NCBI GenBank assembly: GCA_024653485.1
Contig: JANLFY010000006.1
Location: 124,001 to 188,000 of the forward strand
Reading direction: 5' to 3'
DNA length: 64,000 nucleotides
Source of the DNA: Bacillota bacterium
Lineage (GTDB): Bacteria; Bacillota; SHA-98; UBA4971
Shown here: one piece after another, positions 25,934 through 35,373 of the stretch
How the letters are laid out: each line of letters opens with the position of its first letter
Numbering within the stretch: position 1 is the stretch's first letter
Notes under the pieces: generated by a model
Told to the model about the DNA's origin: nothing
Seen by the model: only the letters and a program-made list of their open reading frames with translations
Databases searched by the model: none
Translations under genes and position numbers: made by a program

Positions 25934-27301
25934 CTACCGGGCTAGGATGAGCACGATGTCCATGACGTTCGTGCGCGTCGGACCCGTCACGACGAGGTCC
26001 CCCAGGGCCTTGAAGAAATGATACGAGTCATTGTTCTCTAGATAGGCACTGGGAGCCATGCCCGCCTCCCGCGCCCTCACCGCAGTGTCGCCGAAAACCA
26101 TGGCACCCGCCGCGTCTGTTGGCCCGTCTGTGCCATCCGTCCCCACGGCCATGAGGACCACGTCTGTCATGCCCTCGATATCGAGAGCGGCGGATAGGGC
26201 AAGCTCTTGGTTTCGGCCGCCGAGCCCTGTCCCCCTTAACGTCACGGTCGTTTCGCCGCCTGCCAGCACGCAGGCAGGCTTGGCCGTTGGCCTGTCATGT
26301 CTCGAGAGCTCGCGCGCGATGGCCGCCATCACACGTCCCACCTCTCTGGCTTCCCCCTGGACGCACGATGACAGCACGAGGGAATGATATCCCAGCCTCT
26401 CGGCTGCTCGAGCGGCAGCATCCATCGCAATGGCGTTGCTCGCCACGATCACGTTCGCCACGTTTCCAAACAGAGGATCTCCCGGCTTTGGCGTCTCGGG
26501 CACCTCGCCCCGTACACCCGCCTCAATCCGGCGCCTCACGGCGTCGGGGATCCGGTCCAGCACCCCGTGGCGCTGCATGACCTCCCACGCCCCCACGAAG
26601 GTGCTTGTGTCGGGCACTGTCGGGCCCGACGCGATGACGTCGAGATCGTCCCCGATCACGTCGGAAAGGATGAGGGACACGACCTGAGCGGGTGCGGCGG
26701 TCCGAGCAAAGCCGCCCCCCTTCACCAGGGAGATGTGCTTCCTGACCGCATTGATCTCGTGTATCGTGGCACCGCAGCTCAACAGGGCCTGCGTAACACG
26801 TTGCTTGTCCAGGAGCTCGATGCCCGGAGCGGGAACTGGCATTAGGCTTGAGCCGCCACCTGAGATGAGGCAGATCACAAGGTCGTCCTCTCCGGCGTCG
26901 CGCGCGAGCTCCAGCATTTCTCGGGCGCCCTCGACGCCCGCGGCGTCGGGCACAGGGTGCCCCGCTTCGCGGACCCGGACCTTCGTCAGGGTCTCAGAGT
27001 GGCCGTACTTGACGTTGACGAGGCCTGCCGTGATGCGGTCCCCCAGGGTCTCCTCCACGGCGAGGGCCATTCGCGCGCTCGCCTTGCCGGCCCCTATCAC
27101 TATGACGCGGTCGATCCGCGAGAGGTCGTACGATCTCGCTCCCACCTCCAACACATTGCCCTTCCGGCGAACAATCCTCCTTATCGCCTCGTACGGGTCG
27201 ACCGCGGCGAGTGCCTCGTTGAGGATCTCAAGGGCGTCACGGCGCAAGCCGTCTGTGACACGTGTTGTCCCGCTCCTGTCCGAGGCCGTTTCCGAAGTCA
27301 T
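25934..27301 (-). CDS. Glycerate 2-kinase (MOFRL/GckA family)
   Basis: 455-aa glycerate kinase of the DUF4147-MOFRL type, forming 2-phosphoglycerate from D-glycerate and ATP. ATG at 27301 has GGGAGG 8 nt upstream. N-terminal Rossmann-like domain includes VIVIGAGKASARMA, CLISGGGSSLMPVP and LSDVIGDDLDVIASGPT; the C-terminal MOFRL domain includes LAGGETTVTLRGTGLGGRNQELAL and AVGTDGTDGPTDAAGA. It follows lipM by 50 bases at the end of the glycine-cleavage cluster, which fits a path from glycine through serine and hydroxypyruvate to glycerate; that link is inference. Confidence 0.93.
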   Translation of the reverse strand: MTSETASDRSGTTRVTDGLRRDALEILNEALAAVDPYEAIRRIVRRKGNVLEVGARSYDLSRIDRVIVIGAGKASARMALAVEETLGDRITAGLVNVKYGHSETLTKVRVREAGHPVPDAAGVEGAREMLELARDAGEDDLVICLISGGGSSLMPVPAPGIELLDKQRVTQALLSCGATIHEINAVRKHISLVKGGGFARTAAPAQVVSLILSDVIGDDLDVIASGPTVPDTSTFVGAWEVMQRHGVLDRIPDAVRRRIEAGVRGEVPETPKPGDPLFGNVANVIVASNAIAMDAAARAAERLGYHSLVLSSCVQGEAREVGRVMAAIARELSRHDRPTAKPACVLAGGETTVTLRGTGLGGRNQELALSAALDIEGMTDVVLMAVGTDGTDGPTDAAGAMVFGDTAVRAREAGMAPSAYLENNDSYHFFKALGDLVVTGPTRTNVMDIVLILAR

Positions 27302-27351: not shown

Positions 27352-28239
27352 CTACGCCTCCGCCGCCTCCGCCCGACGGTGCAGCGTCCATGACGGCGAA
27401 TCGTATTTCCGGGAAATAAGGGTGCTTGCCAGGGCAAGCTCCTCTTGCGAGATGTCGTCCTCAACCAGCTCGATAGGGGAGATATGGGATCTCATCCCCT
27501 CTATGATCGCGTCTTCGACCTCCCGGAAGCCCACCGGGCGGCTAAGGATCTCAGAAATCGACGTGGCGTGAGAGCGTAGGTGGTCCACCGCCGCGGCCCT
27601 TTCCGCTTCAGAGGGGAATCTCAGGAGTCTGCAGAGCTTCTCGGCGTCCAGCTCAATGAGAATGGACCCGTGTTGGAGGAACACGCCCATGAGCCGCGCC
27701 TGTGCGCTGCCCACCAGTTTCCGTCCCCCGGCGACCACCTCGTACCAGGACGGTGAGTCGAAGCACGCGCCTGTGCGCACCCCCGCGGCGGAATCTTCGA
27801 CCGCCCGGGAGGTGGCTCCCCGACCCGACGAGTCGCCGTCGTCGCGCCCGCGGATCTCCGCCTCGACCCCGAGGAGGCGAAGGCCCTTTATGATTCCTTG
27901 TGTTGCGAGGCTAAACGATTCCCCCATGCCTCGCGGAAGGGCGGGGTCGTTCTCGCTCATGATGAGACTGTAGGTGACCTCAACGTCGTGCAACACAGCC
28001 CTGCCCCCCGTCGGGCGGCGCACGACGTCTACCCCGAGTCTCTCGCACGCGTCTGCGTCTACGTCTCTTTCGAAGGACTGAACCCGGCCGAGGGAGAGGC
28101 TCGGAGGCTCCCACTCGAAGAGCCTGAACGTGGGCGGGGAAAGACCCTTGGCTACGTGGGCCATCACCGCCTCGTCCACGGCCATGTTCCATGCTCCGCG
28201 CTTGTGTCCCGTACGAAGAAGCCTCCAACGCGTCTGCAT
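27352..28239 (-). CDS. lipM: Octanoyl-[GcvH]:protein octanoyltransferase LipM-like (LplA/LipB fold)
   Basis: 295-aa protein of the biotin/lipoate A/B ligase fold. ATG at 28239 has a GAGGGAG site upstream; the 56-codon upstream extension overlaps the radical SAM gene and is dropped. Signatures: RRPTGGRAVLHDVEVTYS, the Cys159 motif GACFDSPSWYEV and the Lys in GGRKLVGSAQ. The ACFxxPSWYE Cys is what distinguishes LipM octanoyltransferase from ATP-dependent lipoate ligase. It would transfer octanoate from acyl-carrier protein to GcvH. An extra polar loop (about 131-156, GRDDGDSSGRG) is unusual. Lies next to two radical SAM genes that could add sulfur. Confidence 0.87.
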   Translation of the reverse strand: MQTRWRLLRTGHKRGAWNMAVDEAVMAHVAKGLSPPTFRLFEWEPPSLSLGRVQSFERDVDADACERLGVDVVRRPTGGRAVLHDVEVTYSLIMSENDPALPRGMGESFSLATQGIIKGLRLLGVEAEIRGRDDGDSSGRGATSRAVEDSAAGVRTGACFDSPSWYEVVAGGRKLVGSAQARLMGVFLQHGSILIELDAEKLCRLLRFPSEAERAAAVDHLRSHATSISEILSRPVGFREVEDAIIEGMRSHISPIELVEDDISQEELALASTLISRKYDSPSWTLHRRAEAAEA

Positions 28240-28283
28240 TCCGCGCTCCCTCACAAGTCTCCTCGCTCGGACGGCACTCCATG

Positions 28284-29270
28284 TCAACGGCTGCCCTCGG
28301 CTAGACCGACCTCGCACAGCGCCTTCTCTATCTCCGCGCAAGTGAGAGATCTTGGATAGTTGTACATGGTGCCGCCCGGGCATTCGTTGTAGTACGGCCT
28401 GTTGCAACCGGGACAGCCCGATGTCTCAAACGGCTTGCCTGTGCGGGCAATCTCCAGTAGCTTCTCTCGCTCCGCACCGAAGCCGGTTATCCGCCCGTCA
28501 CTGAACCGGAACCCCTCTACGTCCCAAAGTCTGTTTACGATGATGTGCCGGGCGAGCTGCACTCGGCGGTAAGTGCCGATGGGAGGTTGCGGAACGTCCT
28601 CCATCGCCGTGCCTCTCACCGGAGTGAACGCGAAGAGACCGATTGTGACGCCGCTGTCAGTGAGACGGCGCATCACCCGTACCAGGTCCTCCTCGGTCTC
28701 GCCCAGGCCCACTATGAGATGGGTACTGATCCTTCCAGGGAAGAGGCCTGCAGCTTCCTCGAGAAGGGAGACCGTCCCCTCCCACGACCCAGGTTTGGTC
28801 CTCGCGTGAACGTCCGCGCACGCCGCGTCTAGAGCGATCCCGATGGCGTCCGCTCCAAGGGCCAGGATTTCCCTTACCTCTTCCACGCTGGACGCATGGT
28901 GAGAGACGGATATCTGAATCCTCCCATCTCCCACACCTGCGCCGCAGTCGCGGCGCACGGCGTCGAGAGCCGGTATGAGCCACCTGAGCATGCTCCGCGC
29001 CCTGGAAGTGCGCGTCGCCTGGACGCACACGCGCTTCAGGCGAGACGGGTGACGCGCGACGGCGCCAAGCGCCTGAAGGACGTGCTCGGGCTCGAACTCG
29101 GGCCAGACAACCCGGGAGAGGAAGCCGTCCGGGGAGGCGCTCGTCCTCGCTTGAGTGCAGAAAGCGCAGTCCACGGCGCATCGGCCGCCCGCCAAAAGGT
29201 ATACAGTAGTGGGCGCGTCATCGAGACGAGCCCCACGAAGGCCCAGCACCGCCGCGCTCCCTGTTGACAC
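28284..29270 (-). CDS. Radical SAM protein, candidate LipS-type lipoyl synthase component (A)
   Basis: 328 aa if started at the GTG at 29270 (AAGGAG at 9 nt, just after the upstream stop); an ATG at 29312 overlapping the upstream gene is possible. The [4Fe-4S]-SAM motif is CAVDCAFC (C31/C35/C38). The body resembles biotin-synthase-like enzymes (SVSHHASSVEEVREILALGADAIGIALDA, STHLIVGLGETEEDLV). A C-terminal Cys group CPGCNRPYYNEC (C286/C289/C297) probably binds an auxiliary cluster. No lipA is seen in the window. With its partner gene and lipM beside gcvH, it fits the two-component LipS1/LipS2 lipoyl synthase described in Thermococcus. Which of the two it equals cannot be told here. Confidence 0.78.
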   Translation of the reverse strand: MSTGSAAVLGLRGARLDDAPTTVYLLAGGRCAVDCAFCTQARTSASPDGFLSRVVWPEFEPEHVLQALGAVARHPSRLKRVCVQATRTSRARSMLRWLIPALDAVRRDCGAGVGDGRIQISVSHHASSVEEVREILALGADAIGIALDAACADVHARTKPGSWEGTVSLLEEAAGLFPGRISTHLIVGLGETEEDLVRVMRRLTDSGVTIGLFAFTPVRGTAMEDVPQPPIGTYRRVQLARHIIVNRLWDVEGFRFSDGRITGFGAEREKLLEIARTGKPFETSGCPGCNRPYYNECPGGTMYNYPRSLTCAEIEKALCEVGLAEGSR

Positions 29271-29284
29271 CCTGATCTTCTCCT

Positions 29285-30151
29285 TCAAAACGCGCAGCAC
29301 TCCTCTCGCCATCGCGCGGAAAGGCCGAGCGCCTCCGCTTCCTCTCTCGCCGCGGGGGACGGCGCCACTATCCTGTTGACCCCCGCGCGAAGCGCAAGCT
29401 TGTCGATCTTATCGCGATACCCGCCTCGCGGCCGCATGCACCCGAGGTATATGGGTGTCGCGGGGAACATCACCCGCGCCTGGGCCATGACTCTCGCGGC
29501 GAACTCGGGGCTGGGCGGCTCGCGCGACTCGTATGACGTCCCGGGAGTGGGCGTGAAGACGATGAAGATGATGGCCTCCACACCAACACGCGCGAGAGCG
29601 CCCAGGGCTTCGAGCTCACCTGACGGCTCGCCGCCTCGAAGTCCGATGCAAATGTGCGGCACCACGCGAACGTGGCGCCGCAACATGACGTACTTGGCGA
29701 GAAAGTCCCTTGCCGTCACATCGAGGCCGTAAACCTCTCGGATCGTCGCGTCGTCCGCCACGAGATCGAACGACACCACCGGGTGAAGCGGCGCAAGCTC
29801 CAGCACGTCTTCCTCGTCCGCGAGTCCGAGGTGGAGATTGAGCCGGTAAGTCGCGGCGAGCTCTCTGATGGTATCGATGCGTGACCTCACCGGGACTCTG
29901 CCCCGCCTGTCGCAACCCCCGCTCACAAGGCAGCTCGAGACCCGGTCCGCACAGACCAGCTCATGCCACCTCTCGATGGGGATCATGTGCTTGAGGTAGT
30001 GGCCGCCGCAGTGAGCGCACCCAAGCTCGCACGCGCCTCCCGTAACGCTCAGCACGGCGGTTCGCACTGGGTTCACCCACTCGATCTCCTGCCCGAAAGC
30101 CGACCGTCTGAGCCGGCACGCTTTCTCAAGAAGAGCCTCTAGTGAACTCAT
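29285..30151 (-). CDS. Radical SAM protein, candidate LipS-type lipoyl synthase component (B)
   Basis: 288-aa radical SAM protein starting at an ATG with a weak ribosome site (GATGA). SAM-cluster motif CELGCAHC (C41/C45/C48), followed by GGHYLKHMIPIE. Extra cysteines at C74 and C80 (SSCLVSGGCD), one in LGCMRPRGG and two at the C-terminus (EECC) may ligate an auxiliary cluster or act as sulfur carriers. Repeated TIM-barrel blocks include HPVVSFDLVADDATIREVYGL and HICIGLRGGEPSGEL. Proteins like this are often labelled biotin synthase. It lies 99 bases after gcvPB and 14 before the other radical SAM start. Function in lipoyl synthesis is inferred from pairing and context. Confidence 0.78.
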   Translation of the reverse strand: MSSLEALLEKACRLRRSAFGQEIEWVNPVRTAVLSVTGGACELGCAHCGGHYLKHMIPIERWHELVCADRVSSCLVSGGCDRRGRVPVRSRIDTIRELAATYRLNLHLGLADEEDVLELAPLHPVVSFDLVADDATIREVYGLDVTARDFLAKYVMLRRHVRVVPHICIGLRGGEPSGELEALGALARVGVEAIIFIVFTPTPGTSYESREPPSPEFAARVMAQARVMFPATPIYLGCMRPRGGYRDKIDKLALRAGVNRIVAPSPAAREEAEALGLSARWREECCAF

Positions 30152-30250: not shown

Positions 30251-31729
30251 TCACTCCTCCTGCGGCTTTCCTTGGCCGAGTGGTTTCCAGCGCAGCACGG
30301 GCCTTCGCGCCGCGGTGACATCGTCGAGCCTTCCAACAACCATCTTGTGGGGCGCGGAGTGCAATACGTCCGGATCCTTCTCGGCAAGCTGCGCGATCTC
30401 CACCATGGCGTCCACGAACGCGTCGAGTGTGTCCTTGGACTCTGTCTCTGTGGGCTCCACCATTATGGCTTCCTTCACGATCAGGGGGAAGTAGACCGTC
30501 GGCGCGTGGAACCCGTAGTCTAGGAGCATCTTGGCTACGTCCGCGGTGTGGACGCCGGTCGCGAGCTGGTACGCCGCCGAGAGGACGAATTCGTGCTTGC
30601 AATGTCGATCGTACGGCAAGTGATAGTAGGGCGCAAGCCTCCGCATGAGGTAGTTCGCGTTTAGAACGGCATTCTCGCTTGCCTCGCGCAAGCCCTTTGC
30701 GCCGAGGGCTCTGATGTACGCGTACGCTTTCACCATGACGTTGAAGTTGCCGTAGAAAGCCTTGACCTTCCCGATTGAGTGCGGCCTGTCGTAGTCGAGG
30801 ACGAACTTGCCATCCCTCTTCGCGACCACCGGGACCGGCAGGAAGGGAGCGAGCGCTTTCTTCACGGCCACCGGGCCCGATCCTGGTCCCCCGCCCCCGT
30901 GGGGCGTGGAGAACGTCTTGTGGAGATTGAAGTGGAGCACGTCAAATCCCATGTCGCCAGGCCGCGCGATACCCATGATGGCGTTCATGTTCGCCCCGTC
31001 ATAGTAGAGGAGGCCGCCGGCGTCATGCACGATCTTCGCGATCTCCACTATGTTCTCGTCAAATAGACCGAGTGTGCTGGGGTTAGTGAGCATGAGGGCG
31101 GCAACCTCTTCCGAAATCACGGCGCGCAGTGAATCCAGATCCACCCCTCCGCGCGCGTCAGACTTCACCTCGACTACTTGATACCCACAGAACGCCGCGC
31201 TCGCCGGGTTTGTGCCGTGGGCGGAGTCGGGCACTATCACCTTGGTGCGCTTTCCGCCATCCCCGCGGCTCTCGTGGTAAGCCTTCACAATCATGAGCCC
31301 CGTGAGCTCGCCGTGGGCCCCCGCCGCGGGCTGAAGCGTGGCTTCATCCATGCCTCCGATCTCGCACAGGTATCGGCCAAGCTCATACATCAGTTCGAGG
31401 GCCCCCTGGACGAGATCCTCCGGCTGATAAGGGTGGAGGTTGGTGAACCCGGCAAGGGCCGCGGCGTCCTCATTGACCTTGGGATTGTACTTCATCGTGC
31501 ACGAGCCGAGCGGGTAGAACCCCACGTCGACCCCGTGGTTGCGCTTGGAAAGGTTCGTGTAGTGGCGCACGAGGTCGATCTCACTTACCTCCGGCAACGG
31601 AGCGGCGTCCTTGCGGAGCGCCCACTCAGGGAGAACCTCGGCGGGATCCTTCCTCGGGACGTCGCACCGAGGCAGCGAGCACGCCTTCCTGCCTACCTCG
31701 CTCCGTTCGAAGATGAGCGGCATAGTCAT
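30251..31729 (-). CDS. gcvPB: Glycine dehydrogenase (decarboxylating) subunit 2
   Basis: 492-aa P-protein beta subunit. ATG at 31729 overlaps the gcvPA stop (ATGA) and follows GGAGGG at 7 nt. The pyridoxal-phosphate lysine is in [18 protein letters not shown]. Other blocks: [39 protein letters not shown] and [12 protein letters not shown]. With GcvPA it decarboxylates glycine and passes the aminomethyl group to lipoyl-GcvH. Split P-proteins are usual in Firmicutes. Confidence 0.96.
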
Positions 31730-33066
31730 GCCAATCCCTCCAGTGCGCTGCAAAGTGAGTCGATCTCGTCTTTCGTGCGCTTCTCAGTCACAGCGATCGT
31801 CATGACATCGCCAAGGTCCGGGTAGTATCGGCTGAGCGGCAGTCCGCCGAGAATCCGCGAACGAAGGAGAGCAGCGTTCACCTCTTCAGGCGGAACGGGC
31901 GTCCGGACGGCGAATTCCTTGAAGAACGGAGCCGAGCTCGCCGGCGCGAACCCCGGGAGCGCAGTGATCCTATCGAATGCGTAGTGCGCCTTTTGCAGGC
32001 AGAGGTCGGCAACCTCCCTGATGCCGTCCCTCCCTAGCCACGAGAGGTAGACCGCCGTCGCGAGGGCAAGGAGCGCCTCGTTGGAGCAAATGTTGGAGGT
32101 CGCCCGTTCCCTTCTGATGTGCTGCTCCCTGGCCTGAAGGGTCAGGATGTAGCCCCGACGTCCCTGGGCATCCCGAGTCTCGCCGGCGACCCGTCCAGGC
32201 ATGTTCCTTATGAACTCCTGCCGGCACGCGAGAAAACCGAGGTAAGGTCCACCAAAGCTCATGGGATTGCCAAGACCCTGACCTTCGCCGACGGCTATGT
32301 CAGCCCCATATTCCCCGGGGGGAGCGAGGATGCCGAGGGAGATGGGATCGACGCACGCTACGAAGAGCGCCCCCTGCTTGTGGGCGATCTCCGCTGCTGC
32401 GGCCATAGCCTCCACCGAGCCTAGGAAGTTCGGGTTCTGAAAGACCACACAAGCGGTCCTTGACGACACGAGCCGCTCCAGCTCCCCGAGGTCGGTGGAG
32501 CCGTCGCGCATCCCACACTCGGTCACGTCGATGCCCAGGTTCCTGGCATAGGTCTTCAGAGTGGCGCGGTACTCCGGATGTACCGCCACGGATGCCACCA
32601 CCTGCTGACGCCGGGTGTGGCGGCACGCCATCGTCGCCGCCTCCGCGACCGCTGTCGCACCGTCATAGAGTGACGCGTTGCTCACATCCATCGCGGTAAG
32701 CTGGCACATGAGCGTCTGGTATTCGAAGATGGCCTGCAGCATCCCCTGGCTCATCTCTGCTTGATAGGGCGTGTAAGCGGTGTAGAACTCCGAACGCGAG
32801 ACGATGTGCCTGACCACGCTTGGCACGAAGTGGTCGTAGGATCCCGCGCCCAGGAACGACACGACCTCGTCCGTGGTCGTGTTCTTGGCGGCGAGGGCCG
32901 CCATATGGCGTGCGATCTCGTACTCGGACATGGCTTCCGGGAGGCGCAGGTCTCTCTCGAGCCTCACCTCTCGAGGGATGTCCGAGAAGAGATCATCCAC
33001 GCTGGAGACTCCGATTTGAGCGAGCATCTCACTACGGTCCCTGTCTGTGTGGGGCACGTAGTTCAT
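31726..33066 (-). CDS. gcvPA: Glycine dehydrogenase (decarboxylating) subunit 1
   Basis: 446-aa P-protein alpha subunit. ATG at 33066 overlaps the gcvH stop, with GAGGAGG upstream. Blocks: [54 protein letters not shown], and [16 protein letters not shown]. It lacks the cofactor lysine, as expected for the alpha half. Translationally coupled to gcvH and gcvPB. Confidence 0.96.
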
Positions 33067-33455
33067 CCTTTGCTCGCCTCCTCGGCAACGAAGGCTTCGT
33101 ACTGTGCGGCGCTCATGAGGCCGTCGAGCTCGCTCGGATCCTCCATCTCTATGACCGCCACCCATCCATCCCCGTACGGATCCTCGTTGATCAGCTCAGG
33201 GTGCTCCTCGAGCGCCCGGTTGACCTTGGAGACCTTGCCGCTCACGGGGGCGAACACCTGATCGGCCGTCTTCATGGAATCGAGGTCCGCAAGCGGATCG
33301 CGCTGCTTCACCCCGGCTCCCTCGTCCGGAAGGCCGACTCCCACTATCGCGCCCAGTTGCTCCTGGGCATGAGAGGTGATACCCACGGTCGCGAGGCGGC
33401 CTTCCACTCGAACCCACTCATGCTTCTCGGTGTATTTCAGGTCCTGTGGATACAT
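33063..33455 (-). CDS. gcvH: Glycine cleavage system H protein
   Basis: 130-aa lipoyl carrier. ATG at 33455 has AAGGAGG at 8 nt; the longer frame upstream runs through the parS gap and is not real. The lipoylation site is Lys62 in DLDSMKTADQVFAPVSG (family usual: ESVKAAS..). It shuttles the aminomethyl group between the P, T and L proteins, and in lipM organisms it is also the first octanoyl acceptor. No L protein (dihydrolipoyl dehydrogenase) is in this window. Confidence 0.96.
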   Translation of the reverse strand: MYPQDLKYTEKHEWVRVEGRLATVGITSHAQEQLGAIVGVGLPDEGAGVKQRDPLADLDSMKTADQVFAPVSGKVSKVNRALEEHPELINEDPYGDGWVAVIEMEDPSELDGLMSAAQYEAFVAEEASKG

Positions 33456-33796: not shown

Positions 33797-34924
33797 TTAC
33801 TGAGCCTTTCGAACGCGCGGTTTCACGAATGGAGGCCTGACAGCTTCGGCCAAGACTCCTTTGCCGCGAATTACGACTTCGAAGCGCGTTCCAGGCCGCG
33901 CCATCTCGGGTGGCACAAAGCACATGCCGATGCCCACTCCCAGGGACGGTGAGAGCGATCCGCTCGTGGTCTCGCCCACGACCGTGCCGTCTTTCGACAC
34001 CTCGCAGTGAGCCCTCGGCACGCCCTTCTCCAGCAGTCTGAAGCCTGTAAGTCTCCTGGAAACCCCTTTGGCCTTTGCGGCCGCGAGCGAGTCCTTACCG
34101 ATGAAAGTCGGTTTGTCCATGGCCACGACCCATCCAAGCCCAGCTTCCAGCGGGTTTGTGCCGGGATCGAGCTCGTGACCGTACAGGGCGTAGCCCATCT
34201 CGAGCCTCAGGGTGTCGCGCGCTCCCAAGCCGACAGGCTCGATGTCGAACCTCCGGCCCGCTTCCATGAGGGCGTCCCACATGTGTTGCGCGTGACAAGG
34301 GTCGAAAAACAGCTCGAATCCGTCTTCTCCCGTGTACCCCGTGCGCGAGATGATGCACTTCACCCCGGCGACCTCGCCCTGCGTGAGGCGGTAATAGTAA
34401 AGCTGGGCCAAGGGCACGGGAGTAAGCCCCTGCAGCGTCGCGGCTGAGTCAGGCCCCTGAAGCGCGAGGAGCGCCGTCTCATCCGAGACGTCGGTGATCG
34501 CGACGTTGCCGGTGGCGTGAGACTTGATCCAGTCCAGGTCCTTCGACGCATTGGCAGCATTTACCACAAGATAGTAGCGGTCCTCAAGCCTGCAAACAAG
34601 GATGTCGTCCACGGCACCGCCGTCCGGATAGCACATGACCGAGTACTGAACCTGACCGACCTCGAGCCGGGCCGCGTCGTTCGTGGTGACTTTCTGCACA
34701 AGATCCAGCGCGTCTGGGCCGCTCACCTCGATTTCGCCCATGTGAGACAGGTCGAACAAACCCACTTTCTCTCTGACCTTCTTGTGCTCCTCAATGATCC
34801 CCCGGTAGTATACGGGCATCTGCCAGCCGCCGAACTCGATCATCCGCGCGCCGTGCCGTACGTGCAGGTCGTAAAATGGCGTCTTTCTCATCTGGGTGGC
34901 CTGCGCCTCGTCCGCACTCACCAT
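33797..34924 (-). CDS. gcvT: Glycine cleavage system aminomethyltransferase (T protein)
   Basis: 375-aa tetrahydrofolate-dependent T protein. ATG at 34924 follows GGAGGTGAGA. Blocks: FGGWQMPVYYRGIIEEH, FDLSHMGEIEVSGPDA, the folate-binding SRTGYTGEDGFE and ARDTLRLEMGYALYGHEL. The catalytic Asp region (NDAARL) is present. First gene after the glycine riboswitch and terminator. Confidence 0.96.
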   Translation of the reverse strand: MVSADEAQATQMRKTPFYDLHVRHGARMIEFGGWQMPVYYRGIIEEHKKVREKVGLFDLSHMGEIEVSGPDALDLVQKVTTNDAARLEVGQVQYSVMCYPDGGAVDDILVCRLEDRYYLVVNAANASKDLDWIKSHATGNVAITDVSDETALLALQGPDSAATLQGLTPVPLAQLYYYRLTQGEVAGVKCIISRTGYTGEDGFELFFDPCHAQHMWDALMEAGRRFDIEPVGLGARDTLRLEMGYALYGHELDPGTNPLEAGLGWVVAMDKPTFIGKDSLAAAKAKGVSRRLTGFRLLEKGVPRAHCEVSKDGTVVGETTSGSLSPSLGVGIGMCFVPPEMARPGTRFEVVIRGKGVLAEAVRPPFVKPRVRKAQ

Positions 34925-35000
34925 TCTCACCTCCGACGTTCTCTCTTGCTCACCGTCCCGGGCCCGAGCACCCGCCCTCCAACGGGCCAAGGAAAACGCA

Positions 35001-35025
35001 AAACGGGCAAACTCGTTGCCCGTTT
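35001..35025 (-). terminator. Riboswitch-controlled intrinsic terminator before gcvT
   Basis: Minus strand AAACGGGCAA, 5-base loop, TTGCCCGTTT, then TTTTGCGTTTT. It directly follows the second glycine aptamer, so glycine binding should favour read-through into gcvT. Confidence 0.9.
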
Positions 35026-35255
35026 CTCTGTCCTTACGCCTGAGAGATTCCCCCGCCAGCCACGTGAGGCGGCGGGTTACCCCGTCGGCGGCACCTCCGG
35101 TACGTAGCAGCTCCTTCGGTACCGGTCAATTGAGCGCAAGAGGACAATGGAGGTGCCTCTCCAGAGCGCCGTCAGCGAAGGTGCTTTTGCCTGAGAGTTT
35201 GGACACACGCGTGGCAAACGTGCGTCTTGCTCCTTCGGCTCTCTCGCGCCGTGCT
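35026..35255 (-). promoter_or_regulatory. Tandem glycine riboswitch
   Basis: Two aptamers in tandem on the minus strand. Aptamer 1 shows CCGAAGGAGCAA (about 35228-35239) and ACTCTCAGGCAAAAGC (about 35190-35205). Aptamer 2 shows CTCTGGAGAGGC, CCGAAGGAGC (about 35107-35118) and ATCTCTCAGGCGTAAGGAC (about 35031-35050). These are the conserved glycine-riboswitch cores. Position directly before gcvT with a terminator after aptamer 2 indicates transcriptional activation by glycine. Confidence 0.95.
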
Positions 35256-35373
35256 CGCGTCCTCGTCTACGTGGTCGTGCGGTCGCACGCGGTCGCGGAG
35301 CATCTCCCTCCGACTTCATCCGGCCGCTATTCTGTTCGTGGTCTTGTTCATGTACCTTCTGTACCTATCTATA

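What the first reader, a model, noticed from the sequence alone, without database searches (positions are those of the whole stretch)
27352..30151. Two-component LipS1/LipS2-like lipoyl synthase with LipM beside the glycine cleavage genes
Two different radical SAM proteins, both with CxxxCxxC and extra Cys groups, are packed between gcvPB and an octanoyltransferase with the LipM Cys. A two-protein lipoyl synthase, LipS1/LipS2, annotated as biotin synthases, is known from Thermococcus. Its presence in a Firmicute next to the lipoylated substrate gcvH would make a self-contained lipoylation and glycine-cleavage unit.
Basis: partly seen in the sequence, partly recalled or inferred. Interest (0 to 1): 0.75.

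Follow-up and report, generated by a model that had tools for sequence, protein, structure and literature searches.

The report
Two-protein lipoyl synthase in glycine-cleavage operon
A Bacillota bacterium without the standard lipoic-acid enzyme LipA carries, inside its glycine-cleavage operon, a recently described two-protein replacement (LipS1 + LipS2) with its octanoyl-transferring partner LipM; the identification is correct, but the enzyme pair and this kind of clustering were already published and are common in this phylum.

Summary
The observation and its interpretation both hold. The two radical-SAM proteins between gcvPB and the octanoyltransferase pass NCBI's LipS1 and LipS2 equivalog models (278 vs cut-off 230 bits; 333 vs 270), score only 31-35 bits against BioB, and keep the cluster-ligand pattern of Thermococcus kodakarensis LipS1/LipS2. 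The third protein has a Cys invariant in 55/55 homologues at the LipM position. No LipA passes the cut-off in this 98.9%-complete genome or in 16 class relatives; 16 of the 17 carry LipS2. A glycine-riboswitch match lies upstream of gcvT, so gcvT-gcvH-gcvPA-gcvPB-lipS1-lipS2-lipM is probably one glycine-regulated operon. It is not unusual: 56 of 58 Bacillota loci recovered have lipS1-lipS2-lipM and 40 have all seven genes. LipM with LipS1/S2 (Tanabe 2023) and LipS1/S2 clustering with GcvH and a ligase (Neti 2022) are published. One correction to 'self-contained': the genome also encodes a 2-oxoacid dehydrogenase E2 with its own LipB, plus an Lpl(AB)-type ligase, and LipS1/S2 is the only recognised lipoyl synthase for all. 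LipB together with LipM is reported as very rare, so this is the least ordinary feature. New member of a known kind.

The parts
35024..35323 (-). Glycine riboswitch (RF03166 glycine-GGAnGA) just upstream of gcvT
   Evidence: cmscan 67.7 bits, E 1.3e-12 over 12 kb, full model 1-177, but below the gathering score of 110; the alignment shows long insertions in variable stems
33797..34990 (-). gcvT, aminomethyltransferase (longest-ORF start too long; homology begins about 33 residues in)
   Evidence: NCBIfam NF001567 447.6 bits > 300
33063..33455 (-). gcvH, lipoyl carrier protein and presumed substrate, with the lipoyl Lys in ...DLDSMKTADQV...
   Evidence: NCBIfam TIGR00527 144.9 > 115.85; start chosen by homology
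31726..33165 (-). gcvPA, glycine dehydrogenase subunit 1 (longest-ORF start too long)
   Evidence: NF001696 670 bits > 364
30251..31753 (-). gcvPB, glycine dehydrogenase subunit 2
   Evidence: NF003346 791.5 bits > 441
29285..30151 (-). lipS1, radical-SAM lipoyl synthase component predicted to insert the C6 sulfur
   Evidence: NF053742 277.9 > 230, bioB 31.4; C41/45/48, H166, C238, C285, C286 invariant in 74/74 sequences aligned
28284..29312 (-). lipS2, radical-SAM lipoyl synthase component predicted to insert the C8 sulfur; its start overlaps the end of lipS1
   Evidence: NF053743 333 > 270, bioB 34.7, lipA 29.3; C45/49/52, C96, C300, C303 conserved in at least 79/80
27352..28239 (-). lipM, octanoyl-ACP:GcvH octanoyltransferase with presumed catalytic C159 (TGACFDSPSWYEV)
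   Evidence: PF21948 139 bits > 27; C159 invariant in 55/55 sequences aligned
25934..27301 (-). Glycerate 2-kinase-like gene (DUF4147/MOFRL), co-oriented, 50 bp after lipM; linked to the cluster only in the 7 closest relatives
   Evidence: PF13660 and PF05161; linkage in L003-L007, L009, L063

Best explanation
The locus is a probably glycine-controlled operon encoding the glycine cleavage proteins T, H, P1 and P2 plus the enzymes that lipoylate the H protein. LipM moves an octanoyl group from octanoyl-ACP to the GcvH lysine; LipS2 then inserts sulfur at C8 and LipS1 inserts sulfur at C6, each by radical-SAM chemistry using its auxiliary [4Fe-4S] cluster as sulfur donor. LipS1/LipS2 replaces LipA in this organism and throughout its class as sampled. 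Shown here: gene identity by models, conserved ligands, absence of LipA, conserved synteny, riboswitch match. Known from Thermococcus: order of sulfur insertion and cluster chemistry. Inferred: co-transcription, octanoyl-ACP as donor, and activity on this GcvH. Also inferred, less surely, is that LipS1/S2 completes the lipoyl group on the E2 subunit encoded elsewhere, octanoylated by a neighbouring LipB.
For: Equivalog matches over cut-off for both proteins and weak BioB/LipA scores. Ligand Cys/His pattern matches the mutational data of PMC9585515. No LipA over cut-off in own genome or in 17 class genomes while 16/17 have LipS2. One full-length lipoamide dehydrogenase, needed as L protein, is present elsewhere. 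lipS1-lipS2-lipM in 56/58 Bacillota loci, 40 with the full seven-gene order. Glycine riboswitch match upstream. Concatenated LipS1/S2 tree places the window with its relatives, support 0.999.
Against: No enzymatic test of a gcv-operon LipM/LipS1/S2 set was found in the papers searched. The riboswitch is below Rfam's gathering score. No lipT-type electron donor gene is in the cluster. The 55/55 LipM Cys shows conservation, not activity. The published bacterial LipS1/S2 set expressed in E. coli mainly added one sulfur (PMC10332631).
Confidence: 0.93

Rival explanations
1. The two radical-SAM proteins are BioB-, HydE- or PylB-like enzymes for another cofactor that merely sit beside gcv genes.
For: Weak matches to bioB (31-35 bits) and a general radical-SAM fold.
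Against: LipS1/LipS2 equivalog models win by about 250-300 bits; no HydE or PylB model is listed; auxiliary-cluster ligands are those of LipS1/LipS2; LipA is otherwise missing though GcvH and E2 need lipoate.
Confidence: 0.02
2. The third protein is a lipoate/octanoate:protein ligase (LplA-type) and not a LipM transferase, so the unit salvages free octanoate or lipoate.
For: The best NCBIfam hits, all far below cut-off, are ligase models, and the nearest solved structures are Thermoplasma LplA. NCBIfam returned no LipM model to compete.
Against: No LplB accessory domain in the protein or beside it; the C159 motif is invariant in all 55 syntenic sequences, as expected for an acyl-thioester transferase; a separate ligase with an LplB domain exists in the genome.
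Confidence: 0.08
3. LipS1/S2 serves GcvH only; the E2 of the 2-oxoacid dehydrogenase obtains lipoate by salvage through the Lpl(AB)-type ligase.
For: A ligase with an LplB domain is encoded; Tanabe et al. argue that some assembly systems are specific for their substrate.
Against: A LipB lies close to E2 in the same cluster and would have little use without a lipoyl synthase; no other lipoyl synthase was recognised.
Confidence: 0.3

Closest known systems
LipS1/LipS2 lipoyl synthase of Thermococcus kodakarensis (TK2109/TK2248; Neti et al. 2022, PMC9585515)
   Same: Both proteins, radical-SAM motifs, auxiliary-cluster Cys and the LipS1 His; no LipA.
   Different: Genes adjacent here, >130 genes apart in T. 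kodakarensis; partner here is LipM in a gcv operon, not the archaeal Lpl-N/Lpl-C ligase.
LipM-LipS1/S2 combination in bacteria (Tanabe et al. 2023, PMC10332631)
   Same: LipM co-occurring with LipS1/S2 was reported for Schekmanbacteria, Synergistota and Thermotogota, and linkage of canonical lipoate genes with lipS1/S2 for Sporomusa (Firmicutes).
   Different: The parts of the paper's main text read here do not describe the full gcvTH-PA-PB-lipS1-lipS2-lipM order; here LipB and an Lpl-type ligase are also present.
sLpl(AB)-LipS1-LipT-LipS2 lipoylation of LbpA in sulfur oxidisers (PMC10332631)
   Same: LipS1/S2 as synthase.
   Different: Substrate LbpA/sHdr and a ligase instead of a transferase; no sHdr genes or lipT at this locus.
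Bacillus subtilis LipM-LipA pathway
   Same: LipM acting on GcvH first.
   Different: LipA is replaced by LipS1/S2; the other two PF21948 proteins of the genome look like LipB and Lpl(AB), so no LipL amidotransferase was recognised.

Membership tests
LipS1 | Passes NCBIfam NF053742 cut-off and beats BioB | tested here: met
   277.9 bits vs 230; bioB 31.4
LipS1 | CxxxCxxC plus auxiliary-cluster C230, C276, C277 and H159 (T. kodakarensis numbering) | tested here: met
   C41/45/48, H166, C238, C285, C286 by motif and spacing, invariant in 74/74 sequences; the Thermococcus sequence itself was not aligned
LipS1 | Sulfur insertion at C6 of 8-mercaptooctanoyl substrate | not testable with these tools
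   Needs an enzyme assay
LipS2 | Passes NCBIfam NF053743 cut-off and beats BioB | tested here: met
   333 bits vs 270; bioB 34.7
LipS2 | CxxxCxxC plus auxiliary C85, C276, C279 (T. kodakarensis numbering) | tested here: met
   C45/49/52, C96, C300, C303, conserved in at least 79/80
LipS2 | Sulfur insertion at C8 of octanoyl substrate | not testable with these tools
   Needs an enzyme assay
LipM octanoyltransferase | LplA/LipB-family catalytic domain without an LplB domain | tested here: met
   PF21948 and PF03099 only; no Lip_prot_lig_C match, unlike L117 5195-6247
LipM octanoyltransferase | Catalytic Cys in the ACF..PSxYE motif | tested here: met
   C159 invariant in 55/55; equivalence to B. 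subtilis LipM Cys150 is from memory, not aligned here
LipM octanoyltransferase | ATP-independent transfer from octanoyl-ACP to GcvH | not testable with these tools
   Needs an enzyme assay
Classical LipA | LipA model over cut-off anywhere in genome | tested here: not met
   Best 23.3 bits (it is LipS2 itself) and 20.7 bits vs cut-off 310; positive controls detected
BioB | TIGR00433 cut-off of 225 bits | tested here: not met
   31.4 and 34.7 bits

The most novel reading that the evidence does not exclude
LipS1/LipS2 is a general lipoyl synthase in this lineage, acting on targets octanoylated by three different enzymes (LipM on GcvH, LipB on a 2-oxoacid dehydrogenase E2, Lpl(AB) with free octanoate), instead of being tied to one cognate partner and substrate; in several relatives a second, divergent LipS1/S2 pair with its own ligase and oxidoreductase has specialised on a different, unidentified substrate.
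Probability: 0.4. Interest if true: 0.5.

Novelty: new member of a known kind. Interest (0 to 1): 0.3.

Why it matters
It documents a bacterial class (17 genomes held, three families) in which LipA appears to be wholly replaced by LipS1/S2, with the synthase genes in the operon of their substrate. That makes it a convenient source for testing LipM-LipS1/S2 biochemistry on a natural protein substrate, and for asking whether LipS1/S2 is substrate-specific or general, since this genome also has an E2 with its own LipB. It also shows that radical-SAM proteins beside gcv genes in Firmicutes, easily taken for biotin synthases, are often lipoyl synthases.

Tried and rejected
PDB sequence search: no match for LipS1 at E<=1 and only marginal BioB/RlmN matches for LipS2. 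The 20.7-bit LipA-model hit on contig 15 was rejected as a LipA: only partial model coverage inside a 568-aa frame and no LIAS_N match. One batch of family scans failed on a wrong frame and was repeated with correct coordinates. Structure prediction was not run, since it would not discriminate LipS from BioB better than the equivalog models and ligand pattern. No lipT, lplB or sHdr genes were seen next to lipS1/S2 in the window.

Full report
Observation. The 26-35 kb stretch on the - strand reads gcvT, gcvH, gcvPA, gcvPB, two radical-SAM proteins, an LplA/LipB-family protein and a glycerate 2-kinase. lipS2 starts inside the end of lipS1, and lipM starts 44 bp after lipS2 if the ATG at 28239 is used; the longest ORF, from 28407, starts too far upstream. 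Upstream of gcvT, at 35323-35024, cmscan finds the glycine-GGAnGA riboswitch over its whole model with 67.7 bits (E 1.3e-12), below the gathering score of 110; the alignment contains long insertions in variable stems. This suggests glycine control of the operon; co-transcription itself is inferred.

Identity of the radical-SAM pair. The upstream protein scores 277.9 bits against NCBIfam LipS1 (cut-off 230), the downstream one 333 bits against LipS2 (cut-off 270); the BioB model gives 31 and 35 bits, and LipA 29 bits for LipS2. Neti et al. (PMC9585515) identified as important in T. kodakarensis LipS1 C27/C31/C34, C230, C276, C277 and H159, and in LipS2 C39/C43/C46, with C85, C276, C279 as auxiliary ligands. 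The window proteins have the corresponding C41/45/48, C238, C285, C286, H166 and C45/49/52, C96, C300, C303 in the same order with similar spacing, and these are invariant in 74 LipS1 and in at least 79 of 80 LipS2 sequences. The Thermococcus sequences themselves were not available to align, so correspondence rests on motif order and spacing and on the NCBIfam models.

LipM. The third protein has the LplA/LipB catalytic domain without an LplB domain and a Cys in TGACFDSPSWYEV that is invariant in 55/55 syntenic sequences. This is the LipM pattern; equivalence to B. subtilis LipM Cys150 is from my own knowledge. Nearest solved structures are Thermoplasma LplA, consistent with the published view that LipM derives from archaeal LplA (PMC10332631).

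LipA. Neither LIAS_N nor the LipA equivalog model passes the cut-off in this 98.9%-complete genome; the best LipA-model hits are LipS2 itself (23.3 bits) and a partial match (20.7 bits), against a cut-off of 310. The same search detects LipA over cut-off in 10 of 14 control genomes. In the 17 genomes held for the class, 0 have LipA and 16 have LipS2; the exception is 81% complete.

Distribution. One scan of bacterial and archaeal genomes gave 428 relatives of LipS2, of which 80 loci were kept. Among 58 Bacillota loci, 56 have lipS1-lipS2-lipM, 47 have gcvPB directly before it, and 40 have all seven genes in order; contig ends truncate some of the rest. Desulfosporosinus, Sporomusa, Carboxydothermus, Peptoclostridium and Clostridioides relatives are included. 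Several Chloroflexota have lipS1-lipS2 with gcv genes downstream, and Bathyarchaeota have lipS1 on the opposite strand. A concatenated LipS1/S2 tree puts the window with its relatives (support 0.999) and then with other Bacillota, not with the archaeal set. The glycerate-kinase link is confined to the seven closest relatives.

Not quite self-contained. The genome encodes two other proteins of the octanoyltransferase/ligase family. One is a LipB (TIGR00214 153 bits > 83.55), close to a 2-oxoacid dehydrogenase E2 in an E1-alpha/E1-beta/E2 cluster on the same contig as the window (L116 7256-14256). The other is an Lpl(AB)-like ligase with a C-terminal LplB-type domain (L117 5195-6247). One full-length lipoamide dehydrogenase exists on contig 4. 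So LipS1/S2 is the only recognised lipoyl synthase for GcvH and E2. LipB was found in only this one of 17 class genomes, while 10 of 17 have an E2. Tanabe et al. call co-occurrence of LipB and LipM very rare. Whether LipS1/S2 also acts on E2 is the main open point here.

Relation to what is known. LipS1/S2 is established biochemically in an archaeon (PMC9585515) and shown to work with its ligase in proteobacterial sulfur oxidisers (PMC10332631). Tanabe et al. report LipM/LipS1/S2 combinations in bacteria, lipS1/S2 in Firmicutes, and its presence in mesophiles. Neti et al. report that bacterial LipS1/LipS2 cluster with the glycine-cleavage H protein and a biotin/lipoate ligase. The locus is therefore a clear new example of a published arrangement, with a riboswitch, the full gcv operon order and an apparently LipA-free class as added detail. 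Searches for a paper describing this gcv-lipS-lipM operon returned no paper on it beyond Tanabe et al., within an open-access library.

Noticed in passing
L127 981-11000; also L128, L129, and genomes G015, G016: Several relatives carry a second, divergent LipS2 (230-242 bits, below the 270 cut-off); in the three whose surroundings were read it pairs with a LipS1-like protein and a lipoate ligase, and in two of them also with a geranylgeranyl-reductase-like FAD oxidoreductase (LipT-like), a glutamate-synthase-type and a glutamine-amidotransferase gene. Its lipoylated substrate is not apparent. The window genome lacks it.
   Followed up: partly
L116 7256-14256 (contig 6 of the window's genome): Sugar-catabolism-like cluster with E1-alpha/E1-beta/E2 of a 2-oxoacid dehydrogenase and its own LipB; LipB was found in none of the other 16 class genomes, and no LipA exists.
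   Followed up: partly
window 25934-27301: Glycerate 2-kinase-like gene 50 bp after lipM, syntenic only in close relatives; may link glycine/serine turnover to 2-phosphoglycerate.
   Followed up: partly
control genomes Thermotoga maritima and Sulfolobus acidocaldarius: The LipS2 model rings at E<=1e-50 in both controls, over the cut-off in one of them.
   Followed up: no
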